Part shown: in pieces, positions 9,142 to 54,956 of the stretch | How the letters are laid out: each line of letters begins with the position of its first letter | Position numbering within the stretch: position 1 is the stretch's first letter | Assembly (NCBI RefSeq): GCF_003269295.1 | Contig: NZ_QLTT01000015.1 | Location: 62,001 to 126,000 of the forward strand | Reading direction: 5' to 3' | Source of the DNA: Lentzea atacamensis | GTDB lineage: Bacteria; Actinomycetota; Actinomycetes; Mycobacteriales; Pseudonocardiaceae | DNA length: 64,000 bases | Position numbers and translations under genes: made by a program | The notes under the pieces: generated by a model | Told to the model about the DNA's origin: nothing | Databases searched by the model: none | What the model saw: the letters and a program-made list of their open reading frames with translations, nothing else

Positions 9142-9146
9142 CGGCC

Positions 9147-11761: not shown

Positions 11762-11762
11762 T

Positions 11763-27160: not shown

Positions 27161-30100
27161 GTGAAGCCGGAGATGGACCTCGTGGCTGGCCGGTTCCGGC
27201 TGACGGCTGCGATCGGCAAAGGCAACATGGGCGAGGTGTACCGCGCGGAAGACCTGGAGAGCGCGGGCAGAGATGTTGCTGTAAAGCTCGTCCTGCGCGG
27301 CCAATCAGGCGCGGTGCTCGTCTCGGGATTCGACGAGAAGGCCGTTCGGCGATTCGAGCGCGAGGTCCGGATCATGCGCAAGCTTGATCACTCCAACCTC
27401 CCGCGCCTGCTGGCCGGTGGTGTCGACCAGTTTCCTTATCTGGCGATGGAGCTGTTGGACGGCCGCACGCTTCGCGACCTCGTGGACGAGCAGCCGCAGC
27501 TGCCTGTCTCCTGGGTTGCGGCGATCGGCGCGCAGATTGCCGATGGTCTCTCCGCAGCGCACGCGGTGAATGTCGTTCACCGAGATCTGAAGCCGGCCAA
27601 CGTCATGCTCGTCCAGGGCGGCGGTGTGAAGGTCCTCGACTTCGGCATGGGTCGCATCATTGATGATGCTGGGGACGGGAAGCTGACCAGCAGCGGTGTC
27701 ACGGTCGGTACGGCTCGGTACATGGCACCTGAGCAGTTCGAGGCCGCCTCCGTCACCCAAGCGGCCGACCTGTACGCGTTGGGCTGCGTCTTGTTCGAAC
27801 TGCTGAGCGGTGTTCCACCGTTTCACAGCGAATCCGCGCACGGGCTCGGCGAAAAGCATCTGAAGCAGCAACCGCCGTCGATCAAGCTCATGCGCTCGGA
27901 CACGCCGGAAGCGCTGGCGCTGCTGATCGAGAAGCTCTTGGCGAAGAGTCCGGCGAGCCGCCCCGCTGACGCCGTCGCGGTTCGTGAGGCGTTGTTGCCA
28001 CTTGCGGTGGGCGCCGAGGGAGTCCCAGGTTGGGATTCCCTGAACCCCGTCGCTTGGCTCGAGGCGAGGCCCGGAGCGCAGAGCGTGACCGTGGAGTCCG
28101 CATCCAGTGCAGTGGTGAAGACATCCGGAATGGACGTCTTCGCAGTGCACGAGAAGTTGATCGCCGACTACCGGGCCTTCACCGAGGGCGGCACGATCAT
28201 TCGCGACGACGAGATCGCCGAGTTCGTCCGGCAGGACCTGGACAGCAAGTCGCAGTGGCCGGACCCGTGGGTGTCGTTGAACCCGTTCTTCGCTTCCGGG
28301 GGAACGGTGCTCGAGCTGGTCAGCGATGGTGTGTTGCACAACGAATGCGCGCGGATCTTCCAGGCTGGCAAGACGGAGGGTGGCACCGTGTGCGACGGTC
28401 GTCCTCTGACCCTGCACCGTCACCAACGCGAAGCGATCGACATCGCGGATGCGGGCCGTTCCTACGTGCTGACCACAGGAACTGGGTCCGGCAAGTCGCT
28501 CTCCTACATCATCCCGATCGTCGACCGAGTGCTCAAGGAACGGGCTGAGGCGGGACCATCCGCACGCAGGCGGGTCCGCGCGATCATCGTGTACCCGATG
28601 AACGCCCTGGCCAACAGCCAGCTCAAGGAGCTCGACAAGTTCCTGCTCGACGGCTACGGCAAGGGCCACGAGCCGATCACCTACGCCCGCTACACAGGCC
28701 AGGAAACCGACGAGCGCCGCAAGGAGATCCGCGACAACCCGCCGGACATCTTGCTGACGAACTACGTCATGCTGGAGTTGATGCTCACCCGACCGGACGA
28801 CCGGAAATCGCTGATCAGAATGGCGAAGGGTTTGCGGTTCCTGGTTTTCGACGAGCTGCACACCTACCGGGGCCGGCAAGGGGCTGACGTAGCGCTGTTG
28901 ATCCGCAGGGTTCGTGACGCGTGTGAAGCAGACGGGCTCCAGTGCATCGGCACCTCCGCCACCATGTCGAGCGAAGACACGTTCGACGATCAGCGAAATG
29001 TCGTTGCCGATGTGGCCACGATGCTGTTCGGCGCCGAAGTGCGACCGGACAACGTCATCGGCGAGACGCTTGTGCGCGCCACCAGTGGTGACGACGGCGC
29101 TGTTCCGATCGGACGGCTTCGAGTACTTGAACCGCCACGTGCGTATGCGGACCTCGTGACCGATCCTCTCGCGTCCTGGATCGAGACGCGCTTCGGGCTG
29201 CGAACGGACACCACCGGGCGTCTGGTCCGGCAGAAGCCCGCCAAGATCGAAGATGCTGCCCGCGAGCTCGCCGACGCGAGAGGGCTCAGCGTGCGTGTCT
29301 GCAAGGAAGCGATCCAGCGGACGCTCAAAGCGGGTTCGGAGGCACGGCATCCGGTGACGGACCGTCCGCTGTTCGCGTTCCGGCTGCACCAGTTCCTGTC
29401 GAAGGGCGACACCGTCTACGTCACGCTTGAAGACAAGGCATCGCGCCACCTGACTCGCGACTACCAGCGCGTGCTGCCCGGCTCTGACGGCAAGATCCTG
29501 CTGCCGCTGGCATTCTGCCGTGAGTGCGGGCAGGAGTACCTGACCGTGTGGCGGACGGTCAAAGACGGCACGGTTCGCTACGAGCCCAGGCGGGACACCT
29601 CGGCAACGGGTGGACGTGCGGGCGACGGCTACCTCTACTTCGATGCGGATCGGCCCTGGCCCGCCACCACGGATCAGGCGATCGACGGTCGCCGGCTGCC
29701 CGAGTCCTGGCTGGAAACGGATGACCACAGCAACGAGCGCGTGCGTGAGTCATATCGGCCGAGGCTCCCGATTTCCATCAACGTTGATCCGTACGGCAAG
29801 GAGGTGGCAGCGGGGCTCGCCGTCGCGTTCATCCCGGCGCCGTTCCTGTTCTGCCTGCACTGCTCGGTCAGCTACGAGCAGACGCGGGGCAAGGACTTCG
29901 CCAAGTTGGCTACCCTGGACCAGGAGGGACGGTCGTCAGCCACGTCCCTGGTGTCCGCGTCGATCGTCCGCTCGCTCAAAGCAGTCCCGGAGGAAGCGCT
30001 CAGCAAGCGAGCGCGCAAGCTGTTGACGTTTGTCGACAACCGTCAGGACGCGTCGCTGCAGGCGGGGCATTTCAACGACTTCGTGCAGATCACGCAGTTG

Positions 30101-33100
30101 CGCGGAGCGTTGTACCGCGCGGTTGTGGCCGCCGGGGAGGCGGGCGTTCGGCACGAGGAACTGTCGTCGCGGGTTGCTGGTGCACTCGGCCTCACACCGG
30201 CCGACTACGCGAAGGGGGCTGACGACCTCGCTCCGGGATTGCGCACCCGTGCTGCCAAGACGTTGCAGGACGTCATCGCCTTCCGGCTCTATCTCGATCT
30301 TCAACGTGGCTGGCGGGTCACGATGCCGAACCTGGAGCAGACCGGACTGCTCCGGATCCAGTACGAGGACCTCGAGTGGCTCGCCGGCTCGAACGACCGA
30401 TGGGCCGGCACGCACCCGAGCATCCGTGACGCTGAGCCGGACCGCCGAGCGGAGATCCTCCGCACCCTGCTCGACCACCTGCGCCGCAACCTCGCCATCG
30501 ACGTGCAGTACTTCCGCGATGATTTCGACTCCCTGCAGCGTGCCAGCGAGGAGCGCCTCGTTGATCCCTGGATTTTGTCGACGAGTGACCAGCCGCAGGT
30601 GGGAACGGCTTTTCCAGGGAGTTCCCGGCCGGGGGTGAGCCGGTCGAGCCTGTTCGTGTCCGGCCGCGGAAAGTTCGGCAAGTACCTGCGTCGTGAGCAT
30701 TTCAAGGGCCTGTCGACGGACGATGCCGCGCAGGTGATCGAGCAACTGCTGGAACTGCTCGCCGAAGCCGGGCTCGTCGAGCGAGTCGACGTTGCCCCGC
30801 AACGCTCCGGGCGGTTCCGGAGAGGTACGGGGTCGAGCGCCACCGGTTACCGTGTCGCGGCGAGAACCCTGATCTGGCAGGCCGGAACTGGCGAAACGGG
30901 TTCGCACGACCCGCTGACCCGCACCTATGCCAGCGGGGACGGCCCAAGGGTCAACACCTTTTTCCGCGATCTGTATCGAGAGGCCGGCAGTGCGCTCAGC
31001 GGTCTGGCCGCTCTTGAACACACCGCGCAGGTCGATCCGGAAAGGCGCGAGCAGCGCGAAGAAGCGTTTCGCAGAGGCGACCTGAAACTGCTGTACTGCT
31101 CGCCGACCATGGAACTCGGTGTCGACATCGCCGAGCTGAACGCCGTCATGCTGCGCAACGTTCCGCCGACTCCTGCCAACTACGCGCAGCGCAGTGGCCG
31201 GGCAGGCCGGTCGGGCCAGCCCGCGCTGGTCACCACCTACTGCGCCACCGGCAACAGTCACGACCAGTACTACTTCCGCCGCTCCGACCGGATGGTCTCC
31301 GGCATCATCACCCGGCCTCGACTGGACCTGACGAACGAGGACCTGGTGCGCTCGCACGTGCACGCCATCTGGTTGGCCGAGTCGGGACTCAAGCTGGGGC
31401 GGGCGATTCCCGACATCATCGACATCAGTTACCGCGAGGACACCCGCCTTCCCAATCCTGAGCTGCGCCTGCACGACGACATCGATGTGGGACGCCGTGA
31501 CCCGCAAGCACAACGACGGACCGTCGAGGCGGCGCATCGCGTGTTCGATGCGATGGGAGCCGAGTTCGCCGAGACCTCGTGGTGGCATCCGCAGTGGATC
31601 GAGGAAACCGTCCGTGTCGCAGGTGAACGGTTTGACGAGGCGTTCGACCGGTGGCGGCAGCTGTTCAAGGCCGCTCTGGTCGACCAAGCCGAGCAGAACC
31701 GCCGAGTGCTCGACCACACACTGTCCAAACGCGACCACGACATCGCCAGCGCCCGCCGACGCGAGGCGGAGACCCAACTCAACCTGCTCAAGAACGACAC
31801 CGCCGACAGCAAGTCGGTGTTGTCCGACTTCAACCCCTACCGCTATCTCGCCAGTGAGGGGTTCCTGCCGGGCTATTCGTTCCCCCGACTTCCGCTCGCT
31901 GCCTACGTGCCCACCTCAGGACGTCGCTTCGGTGACGGCGACTACCTCCAGCGCCCGCGTTTCCTGGCCATTCGCGAGTTCGGCCCAGGAGCGCTGATCT
32001 ACCACGAAGGAAGCCGGTACCAGGTCACCCGTATCCAGCTGACGCCCGACGCGAGTGGCGACCTGGTCACCACGAGCGCAAAGCGCTGTGGTGCCTGCGG
32101 TTACCACCACGACGTCGTGGAGTCGGCCAGCCGATGCCAGATGTGCGATGAGCCGCTGAGGGACAATACGACCGGCCTGCTGCAACTGCACACGGTCTAC
32201 ACCCGCAAGCGTGAACGGATCTCCTCGGATGAGGAGGAGCGGCGCCGGGCCGGCTTCCGCCTGGTGACGTCGTACCGCTTCCACGACCACGGTGCCCGCC
32301 CTGGGCGGAGGGACGCCCTGGTTTCGGATGCGGACGGCCTGATCGCAACGGTCATCTACGGGGATTCGGCAACGGTGCGGATCACCAACGTTGGCCGGGT
32401 GCGTGCGCGGGAGGACGAACCGCCGGGTTACTGGCTCGACCCCGCGGACGGTCGCTGGCTGAACGAACGCGAGGCCGGCGAAGCCTCCGGGGACTCCAGC
32501 GAGCTGCCGGTGATCGACAGCGACGGTAACGAGAAGCGACACAGGAAGCGGGTTATCCCGTACGTGGAGGACCGCCGGAACGTGTTGGTCTTCAAGCTCG
32601 CCGAGCCGCTCGACGAGCCGGTCGCACTGTCCCTGATGTACGCGCTGGAGCGCGGCATCGAGGCCGAGTTCGAGCTGGAGGACTCGGAGCTGACCAGCGA
32701 ACTGCTCCCGCCTGATCAGGGGCCCCGCGAACGGTTCCTGTTCACCGAAGCGGCGGAAGGTGGTGCGGGCGTCCTGCGCCTGCTGCAAGCGGACCCCGAC
32801 GCACTCCGGCAAGCCGCAGCCAGGGCGCTAGAGATCTGCCACTTCGCCCCGGACGGCACAGACCTCGGTGGCCCGCACCCGGAACGGCTCTGTGCGCGAG
32901 GCTGCTACGAGTGCCTGCTCACCTACGGCAACCAAGGCAGCCACGGCATGATCGACCGCCATTCAGTGCGCGCGTTGCTCCTGAGACTTGCCGGTGCCCG
33001 TGCGGAGGCGACCGGCCGGGGCGAGTCCCGCACCGAGCAGTTGGAGCGGTTGTCACAGCAGTCGGAAACCGGGCTGGAGCAGCGGTTGATCACCTGGCTC

Positions 33101-33376
33101 AAGGAGCACGGCCTGAGGCTTCCCGACGAAGCCCAGCCGTTCATCGCCGAGGCGCTCGCCCGGCCTGACTACGTCTACCGGTTGCCCGGCGTGAACGTGG
33201 CGGTGTTCGTCGACGGCCCCGTGCACCAATACACCGAGGTCGCGCAACGCGATGCGGAGGCTGAGAACCGCCTGGAAGACGCGGGTTGGGACGTGGTCAG
33301 GTTTCCCCACGACGGCGACTGGGCCGCCATCGTGAGTGAGTGCGAACGCTACTTCGGCCGCATCGCGGGCGTTTGA
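27161..33376 (+). CDS. Ser/Thr kinase - SF2 helicase - DUF1998 - nuclease fusion
   Basis: A 2,071-residue protein. Residues 1-290 are a complete Hanks-type kinase: GKGNMGEVYRAE, Lys42, HRDLKPAN at 140-147, DFG at 160-162, APEQ. Residues about 410-1450 are a DEAD/DEAH-like SF2 helicase (TGTGSGKSL near 440, FDELH near 562, CSPTMELGVDI, RNVPPTPANYAQRSGRAGR near 1343). A C-x-x-C pair CGACGY...CQMC is near 1645. The DUF1998-type cysteine cluster is CARGCYECLLTYGNQGSHGMIDRH near 1905. The last 90 residues (PDYVYRLPGVNVAVFVDGPVHQYTEVAQRD...GWDVVRFPHD) resemble a DUF559/Vsr-like nuclease. The helicase and DUF1998 halves look like DISARM DrmA and DrmB joined. GTG start with GGGTGGGAG. First gene of the operon. 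Confidence 0.85.
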   Translation: MKPEMDLVAGRFRLTAAIGKGNMGEVYRAEDLESAGRDVAVKLVLRGQSGAVLVSGFDEKAVRRFEREVRIMRKLDHSNLPRLLAGGVDQFPYLAMELLDGRTLRDLVDEQPQLPVSWVAAIGAQIADGLSAAHAVNVVHRDLKPANVMLVQGGGVKVLDFGMGRIIDDAGDGKLTSSGVTVGTARYMAPEQFEAASVTQAADLYALGCVLFELLSGVPPFHSESAHGLGEKHLKQQPPSIKLMRSDTPEALALLIEKLLAKSPASRPADAVAVREALLPLAVGAEGVPGWDSLNPVAWLEARPGAQSVTVESASSAVVKTSGMDVFAVHEKLIADYRAFTEGGTIIRDDEIAEFVRQDLDSKSQWPDPWVSLNPFFASGGTVLELVSDGVLHNECARIFQAGKTEGGTVCDGRPLTLHRHQREAIDIADAGRSYVLTTGTGSGKSLSYIIPIVDRVLKERAEAGPSARRRVRAIIVYPMNALANSQLKELDKFLLDGYGKGHEPITYARYTGQETDERRKEIRDNPPDILLTNYVMLELMLTRPDDRKSLIRMAKGLRFLVFDELHTYRGRQGADVALLIRRVRDACEADGLQCIGTSATMSSEDTFDDQRNVVADVATMLFGAEVRPDNVIGETLVRATSGDDGAVPIGRLRVLEPPRAYADLVTDPLASWIETRFGLRTDTTGRLVRQKPAKIEDAARELADARGLSVRVCKEAIQRTLKAGSEARHPVTDRPLFAFRLHQFLSKGDTVYVTLEDKASRHLTRDYQRVLPGSDGKILLPLAFCRECGQEYLTVWRTVKDGTVRYEPRRDTSATGGRAGDGYLYFDADRPWPATTDQAIDGRRLPESWLETDDHSNERVRESYRPRLPISINVDPYGKEVAAGLAVAFIPAPFLFCLHCSVSYEQTRGKDFAKLATLDQEGRSSATSLVSASIVRSLKAVPEEALSKRARKLLTFVDNRQDASLQAGHFNDFVQITQLRGALYRAVVAAGEAGVRHEELSSRVAGALGLTPADYAKGADDLAPGLRTRAAKTLQDVIAFRLYLDLQRGWRVTMPNLEQTGLLRIQYEDLEWLAGSNDRWAGTHPSIRDAEPDRRAEILRTLLDHLRRNLAIDVQYFRDDFDSLQRASEERLVDPWILSTSDQPQVGTAFPGSSRPGVSRSSLFVSGRGKFGKYLRREHFKGLSTDDAAQVIEQLLELLAEAGLVERVDVAPQRSGRFRRGTGSSATGYRVAARTLIWQAGTGETGSHDPLTRTYASGDGPRVNTFFRDLYREAGSALSGLAALEHTAQVDPERREQREEAFRRGDLKLLYCSPTMELGVDIAELNAVMLRNVPPTPANYAQRSGRAGRSGQPALVTTYCATGNSHDQYYFRRSDRMVSGIITRPRLDLTNEDLVRSHVHAIWLAESGLKLGRAIPDIIDISYREDTRLPNPELRLHDDIDVGRRDPQAQRRTVEAAHRVFDAMGAEFAETSWWHPQWIEETVRVAGERFDEAFDRWRQLFKAALVDQAEQNRRVLDHTLSKRDHDIASARRREAETQLNLLKNDTADSKSVLSDFNPYRYLASEGFLPGYSFPRLPLAAYVPTSGRRFGDGDYLQRPRFLAIREFGPGALIYHEGSRYQVTRIQLTPDASGDLVTTSAKRCGACGYHHDVVESASRCQMCDEPLRDNTTGLLQLHTVYTRKRERISSDEEERRRAGFRLVTSYRFHDHGARPGRRDALVSDADGLIATVIYGDSATVRITNVGRVRAREDEPPGYWLDPADGRWLNEREAGEASGDSSELPVIDSDGNEKRHRKRVIPYVEDRRNVLVFKLAEPLDEPVALSLMYALERGIEAEFELEDSELTSELLPPDQGPRERFLFTEAAEGGAGVLRLLQADPDALRQAAARALEICHFAPDGTDLGGPHPERLCARGCYECLLTYGNQGSHGMIDRHSVRALLLRLAGARAEATGRGESRTEQLERLSQQSETGLEQRLITWLKEHGLRLPDEAQPFIAEALARPDYVYRLPGVNVAVFVDGPVHQYTEVAQRDAEAENRLEDAGWDVVRFPHDGDWAAIVSECERYFGRIAGV

Positions 33377-33398
33377 CGACGGAAGAGAACAGCAACAG

Positions 33399-36278
33399 AT
33401 GAGCACTTACACCGCAGGCTCGCTGGTTTCCGCGCGCGGCCGCGACTGGGTGGTACTGCCCGAAAGCGCCGATGACATGTTGGTCCTGCGGCCGCTCGGC
33501 GGCTCGGACGACGACGTGGCAGCGGTCTTTCCGGCTTTCGAGGAGGTCAGGTCGGCGGAGTTCCCCCCGCCCTCTCCCGACGACCTGGGTGACGACCTGG
33601 CTGCGGGGATGCTGCGCTCCGCCCTGCGAATCGGCTTCCGGTCAGGCGCAGGGCCTTTCCGGTCGCTCGCCGGAATCGCGGTCGAACCACGCGCGTACCA
33701 ACTCGTGCCCTTGATGATGGCCCTGCGGCAGAAGACCGTGCGCATGCTGATCTCCGACGACGTCGGGATCGGCAAGACCGTCGAGGCCGGTCTGATCGCG
33801 AGCGAGCTGCTCGCCCAAGGCAGTGCGCGCCGGCTCGCCGTGCTGTGCTCACCCGCTCTGGCCGAGCAGTGGCAGCAAGAGCTGCGGACCAAGTTCGGCA
33901 TCGACGCCGAGCTCGTCCTCGCCTCCACCGTGTCCAAACTGGAGCGCAAGCTGGACCTCGGGCAGTCGCTGTTCGACCGTCATCCGAACGTGGTGGTCTC
34001 CACCGACTTCATCAAGTCGACCCGTCACCGCGACGACTTCGTCAAGCACTGTCCCGACCTCGTGATCGTCGACGAGGCGCACACCTGTGTCACCGCGGAC
34101 GAGACCTCTTCGACGCAGAGCCAGCTGCGCTACGGGCTCCTGCAGCGAATCGCGGGCGACCCCGATCGGCATCTCCTCCTGGTGACCGCTACGCCGCACA
34201 GCGGCAAGGAGAGCGCATTCCGCGCCCTCCTGGGTCTGGTCAGGCCCGAGCTCGCCACCGCGGAACTCGACACCGACGCGGGCAGGCGCCTGCTGGCCGG
34301 TCACTTCGTGCAGCGCAAGCGGGCCGACGTGCGGCAGTTCCTCTCCACAAAGGACGGACTCGCCGACGACAGCCTGCGTGAGGACACCGTGTTCCCGGCG
34401 GACCGGGAGTTCAAGGACGAGACCTACCAGCTGTCCCCGGCCTACCGCGCGCTGCTCGACGACGCCATCGCCTACGCAGGGGAACGAGTCAGTGCCGCAG
34501 GTGATCGCGGCAAGCGCGAGGCCCGCATCGCCTGGTGGTCGGCGATCGCGCTGCTGCGGTCCCTGGTCTCGTCACCGCGAGCCGCGGCACAGACGTTGCG
34601 GACTCGCTCGGCCGCGGCCGCGGCTTCGACGGTGGAGGAGGCCGATCTGCTCGGTGCACCTCTCACCAGGGACTCCGCCGACAGCGACGCGCTGGAAGGG
34701 CTTGACGTCGCTCCCGGTGCGGAGCTGGACGAGCCGGGTGCTCGGCTGGGAGAGCTCGCTGACCGAGCGGCGGCCCTCGAAGGCCCAGCGGAGGACTTGA
34801 AGCTCGCCGCCCTGGTCAAGCACCTGCAGGCATTGCTCAGCAAGGGGTACAACCCGATTGTCTTCTGCCGCTACATCCCGACCGCGGAGTACGTGGCCGA
34901 GCACCTGCCGGAAGCACTGGGCAAGAAGACCTTCGTCCGAGCGGTGACCGGAACGCTGTCCCCTCAGCAGCGGATCCAGCGGATCGAGGAGCTCGCAGAC
35001 CAATCGCGAGGGCCTGGCGCGCGGCGAGTCCTGGTGGCGACCGACTGCCTCTCCGAAGGCGTGAACCTCCAGCACAACTTCGACGCCGTCGTCCACTACG
35101 ACCTGGCGTGGAACCCGACCCGGCACGACCAGCGAGAGGGGCGCGTCGACCGCTTCGGCCAGAAGACCGATGTCGTTCGGGTCGTCACGCTCTACGGCAG
35201 TGACAACGGCATCGACGGCAAGGTGTTGGAAGTTCTGATCAAGAAGCACCGGCAGATCAGGAAAGACCTCGGCATCTCGGTGTCGGTGCCTGACGAGATG
35301 TCGTCCGGAGTGACCGATGCGATCGTGGAGTGGTTGTTCCTGAGGGACCGGCGTCCGGAACAAGCAACTTTGTTCGAGGTTGAGACGGTGCGCGAACGGG
35401 CTGCCGCCGTCGATGCGGAGTGGCAGTCCGCGGCTGAGCGCGAGAAGGCCTCGCGGTCCCGGTTCGCCCAACGGACGATCAGGCCGGAGGAGGTCGCGAG
35501 GGAGGTGGCGGCGGTACGGGACGCACTGGGGCGCGCGAGTGAAGTCCGCGGGTTCGTCCGGCAGGCGCTCGGTTCGCTCGACGCCGTGCTCCGCCCAGAC
35601 GGCGACGGCTTCACCGCTGACGTGTCCGGTACCCCGGCGGGACTGAGGGACGCGCTCGCACCGGTCGTCGGAGGTGACCTGGACAAGCCGGTCGCGTTCC
35701 GCACCAGCGCCGCGGTGGCCCGCGGTGAGGCGGCTCTCGTGCGCACCGATCCGGTGGTGGGCGCGCTGGCCGGGTACGTCCTCAACTCCGCGTTCGACGA
35801 GAAGATCTCAGGCCCGAGGCCGGCTCGCCGATGCGGGGTGATCCGGACGAAGGGTGTCCAGACCAGGACGACACTGCTGGTCGTCCGGTATCGGTTCCAC
35901 CTCACGCTGCCGTCCCGTTCAGGCGAGCGGCAACTGGTCGCGGAAGACGCCCGGCTGCTCGCCTTCGAGGGCGCGCCGGCGAATGCCCGATGGCTCACCG
36001 CGGACCAGGCCCAGGCGCTGCTCGAACTGACGGCCGACGAGAACACCGACCCGGCGTTCGGTCATCGCACCATGGCCAGGGTGCTCGACGGACTGCCGGA
36101 GACCGCCGGGCACCTGGCGTCCTTCGGTGACGAACTCGCCGCCGAGTTGCTCGCGTCGCACCGGCGGGTCCGCAGTGCGTCCGGTGAGATCGTCCGCGGT
36201 GTGCACGTGACGGCACAGAAGCCTGCCGACATCCTCGGTGCCTACGTCTACCTGCCGGTCGCTGGAGGTGCTGCCTGA
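33399..36278 (+). CDS. SNF2-family helicase, DrmD-like
   Basis: A 959-residue SF2 helicase of the SNF2/RapA class. PRAYQLVPLMMAL precedes Walker A SDDVGIGKTVEAGLIASELL near residue 119. The DEAH box IVDEAHTCV is near 224 and VTATPHSGKE is motif III. The second lobe has VFCRYIPTAEYVAEHLP, VLVATDCLSEGVNLQ and HDQREGRVDRFGQ (motif VI, near 577). The C-terminal 300 residues are unassigned. This is the kind of helicase called DrmD in class 1 DISARM. The ATG start at 33399 lies 22 bases after the kinase-helicase stop. The stop overlaps the methylase start as TGATG. Confidence 0.87.
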   Translation: MSTYTAGSLVSARGRDWVVLPESADDMLVLRPLGGSDDDVAAVFPAFEEVRSAEFPPPSPDDLGDDLAAGMLRSALRIGFRSGAGPFRSLAGIAVEPRAYQLVPLMMALRQKTVRMLISDDVGIGKTVEAGLIASELLAQGSARRLAVLCSPALAEQWQQELRTKFGIDAELVLASTVSKLERKLDLGQSLFDRHPNVVVSTDFIKSTRHRDDFVKHCPDLVIVDEAHTCVTADETSSTQSQLRYGLLQRIAGDPDRHLLLVTATPHSGKESAFRALLGLVRPELATAELDTDAGRRLLAGHFVQRKRADVRQFLSTKDGLADDSLREDTVFPADREFKDETYQLSPAYRALLDDAIAYAGERVSAAGDRGKREARIAWWSAIALLRSLVSSPRAAAQTLRTRSAAAAASTVEEADLLGAPLTRDSADSDALEGLDVAPGAELDEPGARLGELADRAAALEGPAEDLKLAALVKHLQALLSKGYNPIVFCRYIPTAEYVAEHLPEALGKKTFVRAVTGTLSPQQRIQRIEELADQSRGPGARRVLVATDCLSEGVNLQHNFDAVVHYDLAWNPTRHDQREGRVDRFGQKTDVVRVVTLYGSDNGIDGKVLEVLIKKHRQIRKDLGISVSVPDEMSSGVTDAIVEWLFLRDRRPEQATLFEVETVRERAAAVDAEWQSAAEREKASRSRFAQRTIRPEEVAREVAAVRDALGRASEVRGFVRQALGSLDAVLRPDGDGFTADVSGTPAGLRDALAPVVGGDLDKPVAFRTSAAVARGEAALVRTDPVVGALAGYVLNSAFDEKISGPRPARRCGVIRTKGVQTRTTLLVVRYRFHLTLPSRSGERQLVAEDARLLAFEGAPANARWLTADQAQALLELTADENTDPAFGHRTMARVLDGLPETAGHLASFGDELAAELLASHRRVRSASGEIVRGVHVTAQKPADILGAYVYLPVAGGAA

Positions 36279-39200
36279 TGTCCGCCGTAACCCGCAACCA
36301 GGTCTTCCCCGCTGTCGACACCATCGGCGGCCTGCTGCCTGCGGACATGCTCTTGCGCATCGCCGAAGGCAAGGACGTCCGGGGGTGCATGCCTGCCGAC
36401 TACCGCGTGCTCGGCTCACGGTCCGTGCGTGACGAGGCCGAGCGCCATTGGGACTACCTCAGGGCCGCCTGGACGGAGCTGCGTGCGCACTTGCCGGTTG
36501 CGCCGGAACAGGACACGCCGGCTGATCCGACCGGCCGGGCGATCATTGAGTGGTTGTTGCCGCTGTTCGCCGAACTCGGCTTCGGTGAACTGACCGCTAT
36601 CGGTACCTCCGGCATCGTCGCCGACGGCGACGAAAAGAGCTTCGCGATCAGCCACCGCTGGAACCACATCCCGATCCACCTCGCGCCCTGGCAGTCCACA
36701 TTGGACAAAAGGTCGGGTGGCGCGGGCACGGTGCCACCACAGTCTCTGGTCCAGGAGTGCCTGAACCGCACCGACGCGCATCTCTGGGGAGTTCTCACCA
36801 ACGGCAGGCAGCTGCGATTGCTGCGTGACTCCAGTGCGCTGGCCACGGCTTCATACGTCGAGTTCGACCTGGAGGCGATCTTCGACGGTGAGCTGTTCAG
36901 TGAGTTCGTGCTGCTGTACCGGCTGCTGCACGTCTCCCGCTTCGCCGTGCCAGAGGGCTCTCCGGCCGCGGCCTGCTGGCTGGAGAAGTGGCGTCTCGAC
37001 GCGATCACGTCCGGCACCCGCGCGCTCGACCAGCTCCGGGACGGTGTTCAGCAAGCGATCACGACCCTGGGCACCGGTTTTCTCCGCCATCCGGCCAATT
37101 CCGGCCTGCGTGCGAACCTTGACGTCACCGCGCTCCACAACGGACTGCTGCGGCTGGTGTACCGCCTGCTTTTCGTCTTCGTGGCCGAGGACCGGGGAGT
37201 CCTGCACGCGCCGGATGCCACCGACCAGGCTCGAGAACGGTACGCCGCCTACTTCTCGACGGCGAGACTGCGTGCTCACGCGCGAAGGCGTCGCGGTACC
37301 AGCCATGATGACCTCTACCAGGCGCTGTACATCGTTCTGTCCGCTCTCGGTGACGAGAATGGCCGCCCCGAGCTGGGCCTACCAGGCCTCGGCGGCATCT
37401 TTGACCCGTCGCCGGCCGACCAGGTGCTCGATGGTCTTGCGTGCTCGAACGAGTACCTGCTGGCGGCGGTCAGGCACCTCGCGCAGGTGCGCGACATCGG
37501 CTCACGGCGGGTTAGGGCGGTGGATTACCGGCACCTAGACGCCGAGGAGCTGGGGTCCATCTACGAGTCGCTGCTGGAGCTCGTCCCGCGGCACAGTGCG
37601 GTGGACCGCACCTTCGAACTGGTGGAGATCGCGGGCAACAGCCGCAAGACGACCGGTTCCTACTACACGCCGTCGTCGCTGATCGAATGCCTGCTGGACA
37701 CCACGCTGGACCCAGTTATCGACGACGTGGTGAAGCGCGGTGAACTGGCAGCCTCAGCCGCCGGGCAGGCCGACCCCGCCGATGCAATCGTGAACGAGCT
37801 GCTGTCGCTGACGGTGTGCGATCCCGCCTGCGGTTCAGGACATTTCCTGGTTGCGGCAGCTCGCCGGATCGCCAAGCGTGTTGCCGCCGTGCGCGAACGC
37901 AATCCTGAACCTGTCACGGCAGCAGTGCGAGAGGCGCTGCACGAGGTCATCGCGCGTTGTGTCTACGGCGTCGACCTCAACCCGATGGCGGTGGAGCTCG
38001 CGAAGGTGTCGCTGTGGCTGGAAGCCCTCGTCCCCGGCAAGCCGCTGGACTTCCTCGACGCCCATATCAAGTGCGGCAACGCCTTGCTGGGCACCACGCC
38101 CGCTTTGCTGCGGCGGGGCATCCCGGACAGCGCGTTCATCGCGACCGAAGGCGACGACAAGAAGTTTGCCAAGGCTCTCGAGAAGATTAACCTCGAAGAA
38201 CGTGAAGGGATCTTCACCCTCTTTGACATCGAGGACGTTCCAAAAAAGGTCACCAACGCCGCCTTCGCCACCAGAGTCCGGCAGATCACCGGCAGGTCCT
38301 CGCACGAGCTTCGTGAAGTGCGCCGAAAGGCCGAGGCGTACATATCCTGGACGGAGTCGCCGGAGTACGTTGAGGCATTGCACCTCGCAGACGCCTGGTG
38401 CGCGGCGTTCATGTGGGTCAAGACCACGGACCGTCCCCGAGCCGTGACCGAGAAGGTCTTCCGAGCGTTGGAGGATCCTTCGGGGGAAGGCGTGTCGCAG
38501 GAGACTCACGACGAGATCATCCGGTTGCGCGACCAGTACCGGTTCTTCCATTGGCACCTCGAGTTCCCGGAGATCTTCGCCGCCGACACGGGCAACGACC
38601 TGGCGGGGACCGGCTGGCGGGGCGGGTTCAGCTGCGTCCTCGGCAACCCGCCGTGGGACAGCGTCGAACTCAAGGAACAGGAGTTCTTCGCCCAGCGCTC
38701 GCCCGATATCGCTGCGGTGGGCAAGGCGGACGCCCGGAAGAAGCTGATCGCGGCGCTGCGGAACGATCCGGACACGTTGCCGTTGTTCAACGCCTACGCC
38801 GACGCCAAGCGCGCTGTCTACGCCGAGAGCCACTTCCTGCGCCGGTCGGGCCGGGTTCCGTTGACGGGCAAGGGGAACCTTAACACCTACGCGGTGTTCT
38901 CCGAGACCGCTCGCATCTTGACCGGTGACCGCGGTCGCGCAGGCGTGATCGTGCCGACCGGGATCGCCACCGACGCCAGGACCCAGTACTTCTTCAAGGA
39001 TCTTGTGCTGCGTGGCTCACTGACGGCCGTGTACGACTTCGAGAACCGTGGCGGCCTCTTTCCAGCGGTCGACTCTCGGATGAAGTTCTGCATCATCTCG
39101 ATGGCTGGGCAGGCGCTTCGTGAACCGGCAGCCGAGTTCGCGTTCTTCCTTCACGACCCGGCCGAGCTGGACGAGGCGGGGAAGGCGTTCGCCTTGTCGC

Positions 39201-40408
39201 CGGAAGAGATCACCCTGCTCAACCCCAACACGGGCACCTGTCCGATCTTCCGGTCACGCCGAGACGCTGAAATCACCTTGGCGATCTATCGCCGCGTTCC
39301 TGTCTTCGTTAAGGAACCGGACGAACGAGGTCAAGATGGTAGCAACCCTTGGGGAGTGTCTTTCCTGAGGATGTTCGAAATGGCCCATGATTCTCGTTTT
39401 TTCCGTACTCGTGCAGAGTTGGAGCGGGAGGGTTGGGGGTTGGTTGGCAACATTTTCTCCAAGGGTAAGCAGCGCATGCTTCCGCTCTATGAGGCTAAGA
39501 TGGTTGACTTCTTCAATCATCGTGCGGCCGACGTGGTAAAGAGTGAGACTGCCGTCAGTCGGCAGAATCAGCCACGCCCGTTGGAGGAAGCCGAACTCGC
39601 AAAGCCGGGTCGTCTTGCTTTCCCGCTAAGTTGGGTGCCAGAGGATGATGTCCGAACCGGAAAGCTGGATAGAAAAGGGTTCGAGATTGAGGAAGCTGGC
39701 GTTCGGAGTCGCCTGGTAGGGCAAGAGTGGTCGTTCGATTGGCTGCTGGGGTGGCGGGATGTGACCTCATCTACCAATGAGCGCACTGCTGTACCGGCTT
39801 TCCTTCCGCGTGTTGGTGTCGGACACAAGTTTCTTCTAGAGCTGCCGCGTGTTGAGCCGCCTCTTGCTGTCGCTCTCTTGAGTGCTCAGAGTTCGCTTGT
39901 GTTTGATTTTGTAAGTCGCCAAAAGATAGGCGGCAACAGTATGTCCTTCTTCATTTGGAAGCAGCTTCCGGTACTAGAGCCTGAAGCGGTGACGGTGCAT
40001 GTGTCGTTCGTGGCTACACGCGTCCTTGAGCTTGCATATACCGCCTATGATATGGCGTCATTCGCTCGTGATCTCGACGGGAGCGGTCCTCCGTTCATTT
40101 GGGACGAAGACCGACGCGCTGTCATCCGCGCCGAGCTGGACGCGCTGTTCTTCCACCTCTACGGCATCGGGCGCGACGATGTCGACTACATCCTCGACAC
40201 CTTCCCGATCGTCAAGCGCAAGGACGAGGCCAAGTACGGCACTTACCGCACCAAAGAGCTGATCCTCGCCGAGTACGACCGCATGGCCGCGGCCGGCGTC
40301 AGCCTCACCAACCCGCTCGTGGACGGTGAGAACTACACCTCCAACCTCACCCCGCCGCCGGGGCACGGGCCGCGCCATCCCGCCCGAGACGGCCAGCCGA
40401 CGGAGTAG
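36278..40408 (+). CDS. Large N6-adenine DNA methylase (Eco57I/PglX/DrmMI-like)
   Basis: A 1,376-residue class gamma N6-adenine methyltransferase. YYTPSSLIECLL opens the domain, motif I is VCDPACGSGHFLVAAARRIA near residue 516, and motif IV is VLGNPPWDSVELKEQEFF near 789, so both SAM binding and catalysis look intact. The C-terminal part (from about residue 1,010) holds the presumed target-recognition domain. From about 39,290 to 40,090 the codons become clearly less GC-rich than before and after, as if this segment had been exchanged. The start overlaps the SNF2 stop. Its job is likely host DNA modification for self-recognition, as PglX in BREX or DrmMI in DISARM; it could also be a type IIG-like enzyme. 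Confidence 0.88.
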   Translation: MSAVTRNQVFPAVDTIGGLLPADMLLRIAEGKDVRGCMPADYRVLGSRSVRDEAERHWDYLRAAWTELRAHLPVAPEQDTPADPTGRAIIEWLLPLFAELGFGELTAIGTSGIVADGDEKSFAISHRWNHIPIHLAPWQSTLDKRSGGAGTVPPQSLVQECLNRTDAHLWGVLTNGRQLRLLRDSSALATASYVEFDLEAIFDGELFSEFVLLYRLLHVSRFAVPEGSPAAACWLEKWRLDAITSGTRALDQLRDGVQQAITTLGTGFLRHPANSGLRANLDVTALHNGLLRLVYRLLFVFVAEDRGVLHAPDATDQARERYAAYFSTARLRAHARRRRGTSHDDLYQALYIVLSALGDENGRPELGLPGLGGIFDPSPADQVLDGLACSNEYLLAAVRHLAQVRDIGSRRVRAVDYRHLDAEELGSIYESLLELVPRHSAVDRTFELVEIAGNSRKTTGSYYTPSSLIECLLDTTLDPVIDDVVKRGELAASAAGQADPADAIVNELLSLTVCDPACGSGHFLVAAARRIAKRVAAVRERNPEPVTAAVREALHEVIARCVYGVDLNPMAVELAKVSLWLEALVPGKPLDFLDAHIKCGNALLGTTPALLRRGIPDSAFIATEGDDKKFAKALEKINLEEREGIFTLFDIEDVPKKVTNAAFATRVRQITGRSSHELREVRRKAEAYISWTESPEYVEALHLADAWCAAFMWVKTTDRPRAVTEKVFRALEDPSGEGVSQETHDEIIRLRDQYRFFHWHLEFPEIFAADTGNDLAGTGWRGGFSCVLGNPPWDSVELKEQEFFAQRSPDIAAVGKADARKKLIAALRNDPDTLPLFNAYADAKRAVYAESHFLRRSGRVPLTGKGNLNTYAVFSETARILTGDRGRAGVIVPTGIATDARTQYFFKDLVLRGSLTAVYDFENRGGLFPAVDSRMKFCIISMAGQALREPAAEFAFFLHDPAELDEAGKAFALSPEEITLLNPNTGTCPIFRSRRDAEITLAIYRRVPVFVKEPDERGQDGSNPWGVSFLRMFEMAHDSRFFRTRAELEREGWGLVGNIFSKGKQRMLPLYEAKMVDFFNHRAADVVKSETAVSRQNQPRPLEEAELAKPGRLAFPLSWVPEDDVRTGKLDRKGFEIEEAGVRSRLVGQEWSFDWLLGWRDVTSSTNERTAVPAFLPRVGVGHKFLLELPRVEPPLAVALLSAQSSLVFDFVSRQKIGGNSMSFFIWKQLPVLEPEAVTVHVSFVATRVLELAYTAYDMASFARDLDGSGPPFIWDEDRRAVIRAELDALFFHLYGIGRDDVDYILDTFPIVKRKDEAKYGTYRTKELILAEYDRMAAAGVSLTNPLVDGENYTSNLTPPPGHGPRHPARDGQPTE

Positions 40409-40414
40409 GTGACG

Positions 40415-42565
40415 ATGCCGCAGCTCGCGTTCGCCAACAGCTTCTGGGAAACCTACGACCAGCTGGAGAAGCAGGTCAGGTCCGGGGTGCGCAAGGCCAT
40501 GTCCAAGTTCCAGCAGCTCTCGATCGCCGAGCTGTACGCAGACAAAGGGCTGCATCTCGAGTCCGTTGACAAGGCTCGTGATGCGCGGATGCGCACCATT
40601 CGGATCACCGACTTCTGGCGCGGTGTCGTGCTCGCACCCGACGACGGGAGCGACATCTTCCTGTTGCTCAACGTCGTGCCGCACGATGACGCATACACCT
40701 GGGCCGCGAAACGGCTCTACACGGTGAACACGGCCACGCGGGCGCTCGAAGTTCGCAACGTTGTCGCGATCGAGCAGTTGACGCCTCCCTTGGAGCAAGC
40801 GGCCGCGAACGCGCCGGTGTTGCTGTTCGAGAAGCACTCCGACACGGTGCTGCGGGATCTCGGCATCGACGACCAGGTGCTCCGGGCGGCGCGCGCGATC
40901 AGCGACCGGGCGCAGCTGGAGGCGTTCGGCAGCCTGCTGCCGGAGGACCAGTTCGAGGTGTTGCAGTACCTCGCAGAAGGGTTCTCGCCCGAGGAGGTCT
41001 ACCGCGATGTCGTAGCCGAGCGCCGGCCCGCCGATCAATCGTCCGAAGTGGACGACAGCCTGGCCAGGGCGATCACCAACACGCGCACGCGTATCACGTT
41101 GGTGACCAGCCCCGACGAACTCGCCGAGATCCTGGACAAGCCGTTCGCGGCCTGGCGGGTGTTCCTCCACCCGTCACAGCGACGGGTGGCCTACCGCGTC
41201 TCCTACAACGGCTCAGCGCAGGTGACCGGTGGCCCCGGTACGGGCAAGACGGTGGTCGCGTTGCACCGGGTGAAGCACCTGCTTTCCCGTTCTCCGGATC
41301 GCCGGGTTCTCCTCACCACTTATACCAACGCCCTCGCCAGGGCGTTGCGCGAAAACCTGGCGTTCCTGCTCGATGATGACGAGCAGCTTGCCAGGGTGCA
41401 GGTGACGACTGTCGACGCGTTCGCGAACCGAGTCCTCCGGGAACACGCCGGACGAGTGCTGTCTCCCATTTCGGACAACGATGGACGGCAGATATGGCGG
41501 CGCGTTTGCAGGCAACAGAACCTTCCTTGGAACGAACAGTTCCTCGCGAGCGAGTTCCGGCACGTCGTGCTGGCCCAAGACGTGCGAACCCATGACGAGT
41601 ACCTCAAGGTCGAGCGTCGCGGCCGTGGCTCGTCGCTTCGGGCTGCGCAGCGCAGTCAGATCTGGTCGGCGATCGAGGCTTTCAAGGCCGAGTTGCGCTC
41701 GGCGGGCAAGACCACGCACCTCCAGATCTGCGGCGAGGCGGCGGACGTCCTCGCTGGCGGCGAGCACCAGTACGACCACGTGGTCGTGGACGAAGCCCAA
41801 GACCTGCACCCGGCTCAGTGGCGAGTGCTGCGCGCTGCCGTCAAGGCCGGACCGGACGACCTCTTCATCACTGGTGACCCACATCAGCGGATCTACGACT
41901 CCCGGGTTTCGCTGCGCGCGGTCGGCATCTCGGTCACCGGCCGGAGCAGCAGGCTGCGGATCAACTACCGCAGCACCGCCGAGATCCTCGCCTGGTCGAC
42001 CAGGCTGATGGCCGACGTCGCGGTCGACGAGCTGAGTGGCGACGGCGGCGACACCTTGGTTGGCTACCGGTCCCTGTTGCACGGCGGGAAGCCCCGGCTG
42101 GCGGGGTTCCCGAACGAGCAGGCCGAGGTCGCGGCGATCGCCGGGTGGGCGCGCGACTTGATCGCCCAGGGGGTTCCGGCTGCGGACATCGCCGTGTGCG
42201 CCCGGTTCAACCTGACCTTGGACAAGGTGTTCGACCAGCTCACCGCCGAAGGGATTCCGGCGGTGCGGGTCAGAGACCAGCCGGGTGCCGATGTCGACGG
42301 AGTCAGGCTGGCCACTATGCACTCGATGAAGGGACTGGAGTTCCGGTGCGTGGCCGTGATCGGTGTCAACGAGAAGGCACTGCCCTTCGCGAAGGAGATC
42401 ACGCCTCCTGACGTCGATCTGCGGCAGTACGAGAGCGACCTCCTCAAGCAGCGGTGTCTGCTCTTCGTCGCATCCACGAGGGCAAGGGAGGCTCTCGCGG
42501 TTACCTGGAGCGGTACGGCCAGCCCGTTCCTTCCCGCTGGCGCGGAACGCCAGGTGTGGGACTGA
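40415..42565 (+). CDS. UvrD-like SF1 helicase with N-terminal extension
   Basis: About 716 residues. The first 100 residues (FANSFWETYDQLEKQVRSGVRKAMSKFQQ, DARMRTIRITDFWRGVVLAPDDGSDIFLLLNVVPHDDAYTWAAKR) resemble the RelE-like toxin fold often fused to such helicases. The helicase has Walker A VTGGPGTGKTVVALHRV near residue 270, VVDEAQDLHPAQW near 457, GDPHQRIYD, LRINYRSTAEIL and a C-terminal STRAREALAVTW. The ATG at 40415 is chosen because GGAG is 9 bases upstream; a GTG at 40409 directly follows the methylase stop. Similar N-terminal RelE/helicase proteins are common in defence islands. It is the last gene of the plus-strand operon and converges with the HTH-methylase gene. Confidence 0.82.
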   Translation: MPQLAFANSFWETYDQLEKQVRSGVRKAMSKFQQLSIAELYADKGLHLESVDKARDARMRTIRITDFWRGVVLAPDDGSDIFLLLNVVPHDDAYTWAAKRLYTVNTATRALEVRNVVAIEQLTPPLEQAAANAPVLLFEKHSDTVLRDLGIDDQVLRAARAISDRAQLEAFGSLLPEDQFEVLQYLAEGFSPEEVYRDVVAERRPADQSSEVDDSLARAITNTRTRITLVTSPDELAEILDKPFAAWRVFLHPSQRRVAYRVSYNGSAQVTGGPGTGKTVVALHRVKHLLSRSPDRRVLLTTYTNALARALRENLAFLLDDDEQLARVQVTTVDAFANRVLREHAGRVLSPISDNDGRQIWRRVCRQQNLPWNEQFLASEFRHVVLAQDVRTHDEYLKVERRGRGSSLRAAQRSQIWSAIEAFKAELRSAGKTTHLQICGEAADVLAGGEHQYDHVVVDEAQDLHPAQWRVLRAAVKAGPDDLFITGDPHQRIYDSRVSLRAVGISVTGRSSRLRINYRSTAEILAWSTRLMADVAVDELSGDGGDTLVGYRSLLHGGKPRLAGFPNEQAEVAAIAGWARDLIAQGVPAADIAVCARFNLTLDKVFDQLTAEGIPAVRVRDQPGADVDGVRLATMHSMKGLEFRCVAVIGVNEKALPFAKEITPPDVDLRQYESDLLKQRCLLFVASTRAREALAVTWSGTASPFLPAGAERQVWD

Positions 42566-42716: not shown

Positions 42717-44384
42717 CTAGTCAGCGGTGTCCGGGCCAGGACGCAGAGCTCCGCGAGCCAGGCCGTCGCGAGCCAGCTCGACGGCGCGTCGGCTCCACCT
42801 CGCGAGTTCGGTCACGGACCTTTCGAACTCGTCGAGACGGCGGAAGGCCGCGCCATAGGCTCGTTGATCGGCAATGCTCATCTGGGGGATGCGTGCGCCT
42901 CGAACGTCCACGCGGAACGTGCCGCTGCTACTGGTGGCCTGCTTGATGTTCGCGGCGCTTCGCGCGAACCCCGCCAGGTAGTCGGTGTCGAGCCTGTCGC
43001 TGGTGGAGGTAACAGCATCACCGGAAACCTCGACGAGCCCGGCCCTGGCCAGATCGGCGATCTTGATCGCCGCACTGTCCAGCGAACCTGGACCTGCCGT
43101 GATGGTGGGCAGTAGCGTTTCGAGCTCCGCCAGCCGGGAGGCCACCGCTGCGCGAGCGGCTTCGTAGTCGGCGAGGTGGTCGATCCGCGCCGCCGCCACG
43201 TACCGGCCGGGAGTCAGATCGACCTCCTCGTCGAGCAGGTCGATGGCGGGCACGTCAACCGTGTGCGCCGTGTCCGGTTCGAGGGTGTCGCCCGGTGCGT
43301 GGTCACTCAGATCGATCATGCGGACATGGCTGCCGACTAGTTCCCCATCGGTCGGGCGCGTCAGCGACCAGAGCTGCACCGGCTGCTGATGGGAGGGGAC
43401 CATGCCGCCTGGCAGAGCGACGACCTGCGTGAGCACGCCGCGGCGGACGAGTTCGGCCCGGATTCGTCGTCCGGCCTTGCGGTAGGCGGCCGAGGCGGGC
43501 ATGACGACGACCGCCCGGCCACCCGGTGCCACGTGGGCATAGCAGTGCTGGAGCCAAGCCAGTTCGCTTTCCGCGCGGGTCGGCACACCGAATTCCCAGC
43601 GCCTGTCCAGCAGGAGCTCGTCACGTCCCCAGTCGCTGGCGTTCACCGGTGTCTCGCACACCACGAGATCCGCGCGAAGGTCCGGCCACTGATCATCGCG
43701 AAGTGAATCTCCGACTCTGATCGTGACCTGAGGTCCGCCACCGAGAGTCGCCCGGCACGCGGCGAGGCGCGCCGCGTTTGGATCCAACTCCTGCCCGAAC
43801 AGCGTCACCTCGTCGGATCCGCGGCAGGCGAGCAGCAACGACCCGACACCGCAGGCCGGGTCGAACACCTTTCCCCTCGCCGGACCGGCGAACCGGAGCA
43901 CGGCAGCTGTCAAGCGCGGTGTGGACATGGGCTCGGCGCCTGCTCGGCTGGGGGACGCGAGCACCCTTGCCAGCAGCGCGTCGACGACCTCGTTCGGTGA
44001 ACTGTCCCGCGCCATCTCGTGCACCTTCGCGCGGGAGTCCGGTCCAAGGCCGCTCGAGTTTCCCGTCGTAAGCTCGTCCGCGACGTCGGCCACGGCTTCG
44101 ACGAGGTCGTCGCCGTACCGGGCGCGCAGGGCTTGCCAGAGGAGAACTTCGGGTGAAGGGCCGTCATCTGTCTTTCCCTGGCTGTTCAGCCACGCTTCTA
44201 CGTCTGCCAACGCGAATCGGGCGGTACGGCCGACTCCGCTGGCAGGGGCGGGGAAATCCGGATACCGCTTGCGCCAGTTGGACACCGCGGCTCGTGTGAC
44301 GTTGGCCAGCTTCGCGATCTCGGCCGCCGTCACCAGCGGTCCGGGTCTATCTGCGAAGTCCGTGTTCACGAGACGATCGTACAC
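42717..44384 (-). CDS. HTH - HsdM-like methylase with degenerate motif IV
   Basis: A 555-residue protein. Residues about 18-65 are a helix-turn-helix (LVTAAEIAKLANVTRAAVSNWRKRYPDFP...GRTARFALADVEAWL) of the MerR/excisionase-like kind. The middle is a type I HsdM-like N6 methylase: motif I VFDPACGVGSLLLA at 174-187 and GQELDPNAARLA. Motif IV, normally NPPF before NxSDWG, reads CETPVNASDWG (243-253), so the catalytic Asn and first Pro are gone. The C-terminal part has the HsdS-like coiled segment. It may therefore bind SAM and DNA without methylating. Start is a GTG at 44384 without a clear ribosome binding site; GTG at 44369 is possible. The shared 21-base motif lies 26 bases upstream. Confidence 0.82.
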   Translation of the reverse strand: MYDRLVNTDFADRPGPLVTAAEIAKLANVTRAAVSNWRKRYPDFPAPASGVGRTARFALADVEAWLNSQGKTDDGPSPEVLLWQALRARYGDDLVEAVADVADELTTGNSSGLGPDSRAKVHEMARDSSPNEVVDALLARVLASPSRAGAEPMSTPRLTAAVLRFAGPARGKVFDPACGVGSLLLACRGSDEVTLFGQELDPNAARLAACRATLGGGPQVTIRVGDSLRDDQWPDLRADLVVCETPVNASDWGRDELLLDRRWEFGVPTRAESELAWLQHCYAHVAPGGRAVVVMPASAAYRKAGRRIRAELVRRGVLTQVVALPGGMVPSHQQPVQLWSLTRPTDGELVGSHVRMIDLSDHAPGDTLEPDTAHTVDVPAIDLLDEEVDLTPGRYVAAARIDHLADYEAARAAVASRLAELETLLPTITAGPGSLDSAAIKIADLARAGLVEVSGDAVTSTSDRLDTDYLAGFARSAANIKQATSSSGTFRVDVRGARIPQMSIADQRAYGAAFRRLDEFERSVTELARWSRRAVELARDGLARGALRPGPDTAD

Positions 44385-54930: not shown

Positions 54931-54956
54931 TCAGGCAGAGCGGGTAGTCTCGCGCC

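What the first reader, a model, noticed from the sequence alone, without database searches (positions are those of the whole stretch)
27161..44384. Non-canonical DISARM-like system with a kinase-helicase-nuclease fusion
Seen: a plus-strand operon encoding a Ser/Thr kinase-helicase-DUF1998-nuclease protein, a SNF2 helicase, an N6-adenine methylase and a UvrD-like helicase, closed by a convergent HTH-methylase gene. Class 1 DISARM has drmD (SNF2), drmMI (N6 methylase), drmA (helicase), drmB (DUF1998) and drmC (PLD). BREX type 2 has the kinase PglW, methylase PglX and PglZ. This locus has pieces of both but no PLD gene and no PglZ. Inference: a distinct defence system that modifies self DNA and uses kinase-controlled translocases.
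Basis: partly seen in the sequence, partly recalled or inferred. Interest (0 to 1): 0.85.

Follow-up and report, generated by a model that had tools for sequence, protein, structure and literature searches.

The report
Kinase-fused ARMADA antiphage operon
This is a bacterial anti-virus gene cluster of the recently named ARMADA kind, in which the central DNA-unwinding enzyme has been fused to a protein kinase; relatives suggest that such a kinase was added to ARMADA twice, which hints that a phosphorylation switch controls it.

Summary
In detail: a four-gene plus-strand operon (27161-42565) and a convergent HTH-methylase-like gene (42717-44384). The reading is half right. It is not DISARM or BREX but an ARMADA system (Bell et al. 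[quoted passage not shown] Gene order and tree make the core type I; ArmD is a type II hallmark. The paper's main text never mentions a kinase, yet the kinase-YprA fusion is in 14 of 32 other loci of an order sample and 78 of 80 GTDB loci (22 named genera), motifs intact, as one clade within type I with one sampled loss. A separate kinase gene stands just upstream of armA in 23 of 24 testable loci of one actinobacterial type II clade. Kinase coupling therefore probably arose twice. Most likely the kinase switches the helicase-nuclease; that step is inferred. The HTH-methylase has a degenerate motif IV and is a loosely linked neighbour. New variant of a known kind.

The parts
27161..33376 (+). 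armC-like gene: Ser/Thr kinase + YprA/DruE-like helicase + MZB(DUF1998) + Vsr-like nuclease, 2071 aa
   Evidence: E. coli ArmC comparison
27203..27967 (+). Ser/Thr protein kinase domain, residues 15-269; Lys42, HRD, DFG, APE present
   Evidence: motifs kept in 15 of 15 aligned kinase-bearing proteins incl. the window, two of them with SPE for APE, and found by pattern in 78 of 78
28418..31216 (+). helicase core: RecA1 (residues 420-605) to RecA2 (1281-1352)
   Evidence: Walker A and DELH kept in all 33 aligned YprA proteins
32633..32917 (+). MZB/DUF1998 zinc-binding domain, residues 1825-1919
33068..33358 (+). Vsr-like nuclease domain, about residues 1970-2066
   Evidence: D2003, D2018, H2022, D2031 invariant in 15
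33399..36278 (+). armA: BrxHII/DrmD-like SNF2 helicase (ORF from 33336; start at 33399 inferred)
   Evidence: PADLOC PDLC02853 1651 bits full length; Walker A, DEAH
36278..40408 (+). armB: PglX/DrmMI-like N6-adenine methylase, DPACGSG and NPPW intact
40409..42565 (+). armD: GajB-like UvrD helicase with N-terminal RelE fold
   Evidence: 36% over full length to E. coli ATCC 8739 ArmD; GajB 123 bits
40412..40699 (+). RelE/ParE-fold domain of ArmD, residues 2-97
42717..44384 (-). HTH + HsdM-like protein with degenerate motif IV (ETPV); loosely linked companion, membership unsure

Best explanation
A kinase-armed ARMADA defence system. Shown by sequence and models: the YprA helicase carries a complete Hanks-type kinase at its N-terminus and a Vsr-like nuclease at its C-terminus, and is packed in one operon with a SNF2-type translocase (ArmA), an adenine methylase (ArmB) and a RelE-UvrD helicase (ArmD). 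Inferred: ArmB marks or reads host DNA; ArmA, YprA and ArmD load on unmarked or replicating phage DNA; the nuclease cuts it without killing the cell, as reported for E. coli ARMADA II. Inferred and new: the kinase, by autophosphorylation or by phosphorylating its partners, is a switch that couples an infection signal to the helicase-nuclease or keeps it silent in uninfected cells.
For: Domains and model matches. ARMADA definition and experiments: in E. coli all four genes are needed, as are Walker motifs and ArmB NPPW, two other motif mutants losing activity only partly (PMC12458937, text read). YprA, ArmA, ArmB in the same order in 32 of 32 other loci of an order sample; in the tree type I with the window is set apart from four type II proteins with support 100. 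ArmD homology over full length incl. the RelE region. Kinase fusion in 14 of 32, 78 of 80, and 13 of 13 further loci picked by ArmA score against 0 of 7 lower-scoring ones fetched with them; kinase motifs kept in 15 of 15 and 78 of 78. A second, stand-alone kinase lineage upstream of armA in 23 of 24 testable type II loci of one clade, 0 of 15 in the remaining fetched loci. The fused and the stand-alone kinases are separate clades; one joint clade is disfavoured, AU p 0.031 (grouping chosen after the tree was seen). Wadjet I genes lie next door.
Against: No experiment on a kinase-bearing ARMADA was found. 18 of 32 order loci and 39 of the 40 plasmid records listed (of 68) lack the kinase part, so it is not needed for ARMADA as such. 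One nested Streptomyces locus, L176, has no kinase. A regulatory role is not shown: I looked for no substrate, phosphatase or phosphopeptide-binding domain beyond the family scans. Two kinase origins rest on quick trees with a midpoint root and host kinases of one genome only; the YprA tree carries long-branch warnings.
Confidence: 0.72

Rival explanations
1. The kinase is an effector, not a switch: it phosphorylates host or phage proteins to stop the infection, while the helicase-nuclease acts in parallel or as its sensor.
For: Best PADLOC matches of the kinase part are defence kinases, PD-T4-6 (268 bits) and MAD6 (215 bits). In one type II clade the kinase is a separate gene, so it can act in trans.
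Against: Those matches cover the common Hanks domain, which NCBIfam housekeeping-type kinases match as well (PknB-type 244 bits). Fusion to the helicase in one architecture, in 78 of 80 loci, suits control of the helicase better. E. coli ARMADA is reported to work without growth arrest (PMC12458937), and no kinase gene is annotated in the ATCC 8739 locus.
Confidence: 0.25
2. A specific form of the switch: the kinase keeps the system off by phosphorylating ArmA, ArmD or the nuclease, and phage interference with the kinase releases the weapon.
For: The system has two potentially self-harming parts, a Vsr-like nuclease and a RelE fold. Of 18 kinase-less order loci 8 have lost nuclease motif residues (L048-L051, L058-L060, L062), against 0 of 15 kinase-bearing ones (read from the alignment).
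Against: 10 of 18 kinase-less loci keep the nuclease motifs, so a nuclease without kinase is tolerated. Several of the losses lie in related loci, so descent may explain them. Whether the RelE fold is an active RNase is untested.
Confidence: 0.3
3. A non-canonical DISARM or DISARM/BREX hybrid, as first read.
For: armA and armB match DrmD (NCBIfam 291 bits) and DrmMI (PADLOC 238 bits) models.
Against: DrmD is far under its cut-off of 610; helicase and DUF1998 are in one protein; no PLD or PglZ family among scanned proteins; PADLOC's best match for armA is another model, full length at 1651 bits.
Confidence: 0.05
4. The HTH-methylase gene is an integral fifth component, for instance a specificity or control subunit.
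For: Homologues lie in the fetched stretch of 13 of 14 kinase loci (those of L045 and L046 weak and 13-16 kb after armB) and of 0 of 18 kinase-less loci; also in 18 of 80 GTDB loci.
Against: Position and strand vary: convergent after armD in L040, L042-L044 and the window, elsewhere upstream of the kinase gene on either strand. Not found in the held stretch of 62 of 80 GTDB loci, some of them cut short. Upstream flanks were fetched for only 4 of the 18 kinase-less loci.
Confidence: 0.35

Closest known systems
ARMADA type I (Bell et al. 2025, PMC12458937)
   Same: Gene order YprA, BrxHII-like, PglX-like; Vsr-like nuclease at the YprA C-terminus; YprA tree position; 36-52% identity over about residues 293-2066 to most of the YprA homologues on plasmids listed.
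   Different: N-terminal Ser/Thr kinase; armD present; HTH-methylase companion. The word kinase does not occur in the paper's main text; its supplements could not be opened.
ARMADA type II (E. coli ATCC 8739, L114)
   Same: The same four protein families including ArmD, 36% over full length.
   Different: Gene order armA-armB-armC-armD; YprA similar only in parts (24% over the C-terminal half, 36% over RecA1); no kinase gene annotated there. In one actinobacterial type II clade a separate kinase gene precedes armA.
Druantia type III (DruE/DruH)
   Same: DruE and this protein are YprA-family helicases; PADLOC DruE3 338 bits.
   Different: No DruH in the PADLOC rows shown; only local similarity to E. 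coli DruE.
BREX type 2 / Pgl (PglW kinase, PglX)
   Same: A kinase and an N6 methylase in one defence operon.
   Different: No PglZ family found; PglW model 39 bits where 990 are required. PglW architecture from passages of PMC12839542.
DISARM class 1
   Same: SNF2 helicase and N6 methylase of related families.
   Different: No separate DrmA/DrmB, no DrmC; below curated cut-offs.
Mokosh (MkoA)
   Same: A kinase fused to a helicase in a defence protein (recalled); PADLOC MkoA match 119 bits.
   Different: The match covers the kinase part only (residues 5-283); MkoA's helicase type and PLD partner are recalled, from no call.

Membership tests
ARMADA | YprA-like + BrxHII/RapA-like + PglX-like genes in one operon | tested here: met
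ARMADA | YprA protein branches with ARMADA, apart from Druantia | tested here: met
   only one Druantia sequence, no DISARM or repair YprA in the tree, long-branch warnings given
ARMADA | Vsr-type PD-(D/E)xK nuclease at the YprA C-terminus | tested here: met
ARMADA | BrxA-like insert and zinc-binding beta-barrel in YprA | not tested
   protein too long for one fold job; Cys pairs seen in the sequence only
ARMADA type I | gene order YprA, BrxHII-like, PglX-like | tested here: met
ARMADA type I | armD not part of the described type I operon | tested here: not met
   armD is adjacent here; it lies downstream in 11 of 14 kinase-bearing and near 3 of 18 kinase-less loci
ARMADA type II | order BrxHII, PglX, YprA, GajB-like; YprA in the type II clade | tested here: not met
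ARMADA type II | GajB-like helicase with N-terminal RelE fold | tested here: met
ARMADA | protects against phage without abortive infection | not testable with these tools
   needs phage assays
DISARM class 1 | DrmA with separate DrmB (DUF1998), DrmC PLD | tested here: not met
   (scanned proteins only)
BREX type 2 | PglW and PglZ | tested here: not met
   (scanned proteins only)
Druantia III | DruE with DruH | tested here: not met
   no DruH in the rows shown (at most 25 per protein) for 14 proteins scanned against PADLOC
Dpd | DpdE at NCBIfam cut-off | tested here: not met
   DpdE 177 of 500 bits; 7-deazaguanine genes were not specifically searched
MADS | MAD6 kinase and MAD2 methylase at cut-off | tested here: not met
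   MAD6 138 of 460 bits (first protein), MAD2 28 of 720 (armB)

The most novel reading that the evidence does not exclude
ARMADA of Actinomycetota is a phospho-regulated immune machine: two separate protein-kinase lineages were recruited independently, one fused to the YprA helicase-nuclease of type I and one as a stand-alone gene ahead of armA of type II, so that phosphorylation is a general way to sense infection or to restrain ARMADA, overlooked because the system was tested in E. coli, whose locus has no such kinase.
Probability: 0.45. Interest if true: 0.75.

Novelty: new variant of a known kind. Interest (0 to 1): 0.6.

Why it matters
Kinase-coupled ARMADA was found in 35 of 394 genomes of the class sample (my union of 14 with the fusion, and 22 with the stand-alone kinase, one genome in both; it assumes that both calls drew the same 394). 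So it is a common defence of actinomycetes, yet PADLOC labels its parts DruE3, DpdE, DrmMI and GajB. The kinase gives a handle on an open question, how helicase-nuclease defences such as ARMADA and Druantia are switched on by infection and kept off otherwise: kinase-dead and naturally kinase-less versions can be compared directly.

Tried and rejected
DISARM, BREX 2, Dpd, MADS and Druantia III memberships were tested against models and curated cut-offs and rejected. A fixed five-gene unit was rejected: the HTH-methylase wanders, and armB and armD are usually separated by other genes. The idea that the HTH-methylase family is dead throughout was rejected: 3 of 14 further members read by pattern have NPPY, though the window has ETPV and the order relatives D/E/H/Y-PP. 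Foldseek alone gave no match under E 0.001 for either model: for the ArmD N-terminus its top rows were still RelE-type toxins (best 0.007); for the nuclease its top rows were unrelated or only loosely PD-(D/E)xK. A profile search of solved structures with the ArmD N-terminus gave only weak YoeB rows (E 0.23). The MADS literature search returned unrelated papers. NCBIfam found nothing telling in ten neighbouring frames. Papers: of PMC12458937 I read the outline, parts 1-3 of 8 of the text (abstract, introduction, results up to part of the co-occurrence section) and the figure legends, not the rest and no supplements; of PMC11090510, PMC13192584, PMC12904381 and PMC12839542 passages only. Searches whose listings showed no kinase-bearing ARMADA; the library holds open-licence papers only.

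Rows dropped: the YprA tree used 59 of 67 collected proteins (8 close relatives left out) and took in 21 of the 80 GTDB loci; the kinase test used 86 of 90 rows: three kinase hits in type II loci that are not the upstream gene and one long host row were left out. 40 of 44 type II-like matches were fetched. 40 of 68 plasmid records were listed. Of 16 lower-scoring genomes, 7 were fetched as controls and 3 had been seen in the order sample.
Full report
What is there. The five reading frames are real. Pfam gives Pkinase, DEAD, Helicase_C and MZB in the first, an SNF2-type helicase in the second, an Eco57I/N6 methylase in the third, UvrD in the fourth, HTH_17 (just under cut-off) and N6_Mtase in the fifth. 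PADLOC gives DruE3 (338 bits), a full-length 1651-bit match to PDLC02853 labelled DpdE, DrmMI (238), GajB (123) and a type I methylase (253). No NCBIfam model in the rows shown reaches its cut-off (25 of 38 rows shown for the first protein).

Type. A sample of 397 genomes of the order held 33 (own included) with a full-length ArmA relative of 880 bits or more; the next match had 157 bits. In 32 of 32 other loci YprA precedes and ArmB follows ArmA (ArmB is cut by the fetched end in L064). In a 59-row YprA tree the window lies with type I, and four type II proteins are set apart with support 100 (quick method, long-branch warnings). Similarity to E. coli ArmC is partial, 24% over the C-terminal half; against most listed plasmid homologues it is 36-52%.

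The kinase. It is fused in 14 of the 32, with its catalytic motifs kept in 15 of 15 with the window. 79 of 80 are titled Actinomycetota, in 22 named genera; the other is a 9.9-kb contig of a Melainabacteria MAG. All 78 show the K, HRD, DFG and APE motifs by pattern. In a class sample of 394 genomes, 14 (own included) had an ArmA over 1260 bits; the kinase was found in 13 of 13 of the others and in 0 of 7 lower-scoring ones fetched with them. The tree needs two changes of the kinase label, which fits one gain and one loss. Against it: of 40 plasmid records listed only Streptomyces sp. BHT-5-2 covers the kinase; the rest begin at residues 293-325.

A second kinase. S. jietaisiensis carries a type II operon preceded by a protein kinase gene, 128 bp before armA (PF00069 120.8 bits). 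With its ArmA as query, 41 of 394 class genomes matched. Of 40 fetched loci, 25 form the higher-scoring set (L266-L290): L277 is cut off, L285 has no kinase, and 23 of 24 have a co-directional kinase directly upstream of armA; in the remaining 15 (L291-L305) none has (L301 has one on the other strand about 2 kb away). A related plasmid, S. griseoaurantiacus, shows no kinase before its operon, but its armA region lies at the record's end. The fused and stand-alone kinases are separate clades among 26 host-kinase rows; forcing them together costs 54 log units, AU p 0.031 (the grouping was chosen after seeing the tree). The own genome has 25 kinase matches in 9.3 Mb, so a co-directional kinase within 2 kb upstream is expected by chance for well under 1% of genes (my estimate).

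Companions. armD lies downstream of armB in 11 of 14 kinase loci, separated by 2.5-13.4 kb of other genes in the ten loci measured and about 3 kb in L040. Three cargo types were named by Pfam: McrBC (PF10117), GmrSD and DUF6119. In the window and L118 the slot is empty. In 11 of 18 kinase-less loci the McrB/McrC-like gene pair follows armB directly (by protein clusters). Bell et al. 2024 noted a DISARM-like cassette with McrBC (passage). The HTH-methylase is in the fetched stretch of 13 of 14 kinase loci, two of them weak, and 0 of 18 kinase-less, and of 18 of 80 GTDB loci. Its motif IV is ETPV in the window, D/E/H/Y-PP in the order relatives, and NPPY in 3 of 14 others.

How it most likely works. 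From PMC12458937: E. coli ARMADA II needs all four genes, the helicase Walker A motifs and the methylase NPPW, and protects without killing the cell. By homology the window's proteins should move along and cut foreign DNA, with ArmB giving self/non-self discrimination. The kinase sits just before the helicase; its activation segment has invariant T176 and T184, which would suit autophosphorylation. I take it as a switch. Whether it turns the system on or holds it off is open; the loss of nuclease residues in 8 of 18 kinase-less but 0 of 15 kinase-bearing proteins leans weakly to restraint, but relatedness could explain it.

Verdict. Ordinary as to kind, since ARMADA is named and tested; new as to the kinase, which the main text of the defining paper does not mention and which recurs in two forms. 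I could not read that paper's supplements, so the fusion may be listed there.

Noticed in passing
window 44552-51294: The four Wadjet type I genes (JetD, JetC, JetB, JetA) on the minus strand directly after the HTH-methylase gene.
   Followed up: no
window 52390-57695: Two TIR-TPR proteins, the first with an NB-ARC/AAA domain: STAND-like candidates for defence.
   Followed up: no
L033-L044, between armB and armD: Variable cargo slot of 2.5-13.4 kb with McrBC, GmrSD, DUF6119 and other genes (in L034 a protein that I read, unscanned, as type IIG-like); empty in the window and L118.
   Followed up: partly
L266-L290 (type II loci), L235 9132-10370: Stand-alone kinase gene directly upstream of armA in an actinobacterial type II clade.
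   Followed up: yes
L144 3800-9520 and L171 2465-9407: Divergent upstream set HTH-methylase, stand-alone kinase, armD next to a kinase-fused ARMADA; this kinase groups with a host kinase beside the fused ones.
   Followed up: partly
L048-L051, L058-L060, L062: Kinase-less type I YprA proteins whose nuclease motif residues are lost.
   Followed up: partly
L046 and L054: A second ArmB copy: before the kinase gene in L046, in tandem in L054.
   Followed up: no
L226 9001-20497: Deinococcus radiodurans plasmid MP1 carries a type I ARMADA trio whose methylase is annotated as two neighbouring CDS.
   Followed up: no
PADLOC model PDLC02853: Labelled DpdE but matches ArmA at full length in 33 of 397 genomes of the order sample, beside YprA and ArmB in the 32 fetched; likely a misnamed model.
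   Followed up: partly
L119: A 9.9-kb contig of a Melainabacteria MAG holds the kinase-YprA fusion at 76% identity; I suspect misbinning from an actinomycete, untested.
   Followed up: no
window 9068-16034: tRNA-Pro followed by a weak HEPN match (12449-13171, below cut-off) and a Schlafen AlbA_2 protein (13339-14664), possibly the edge of an island.
   Followed up: no
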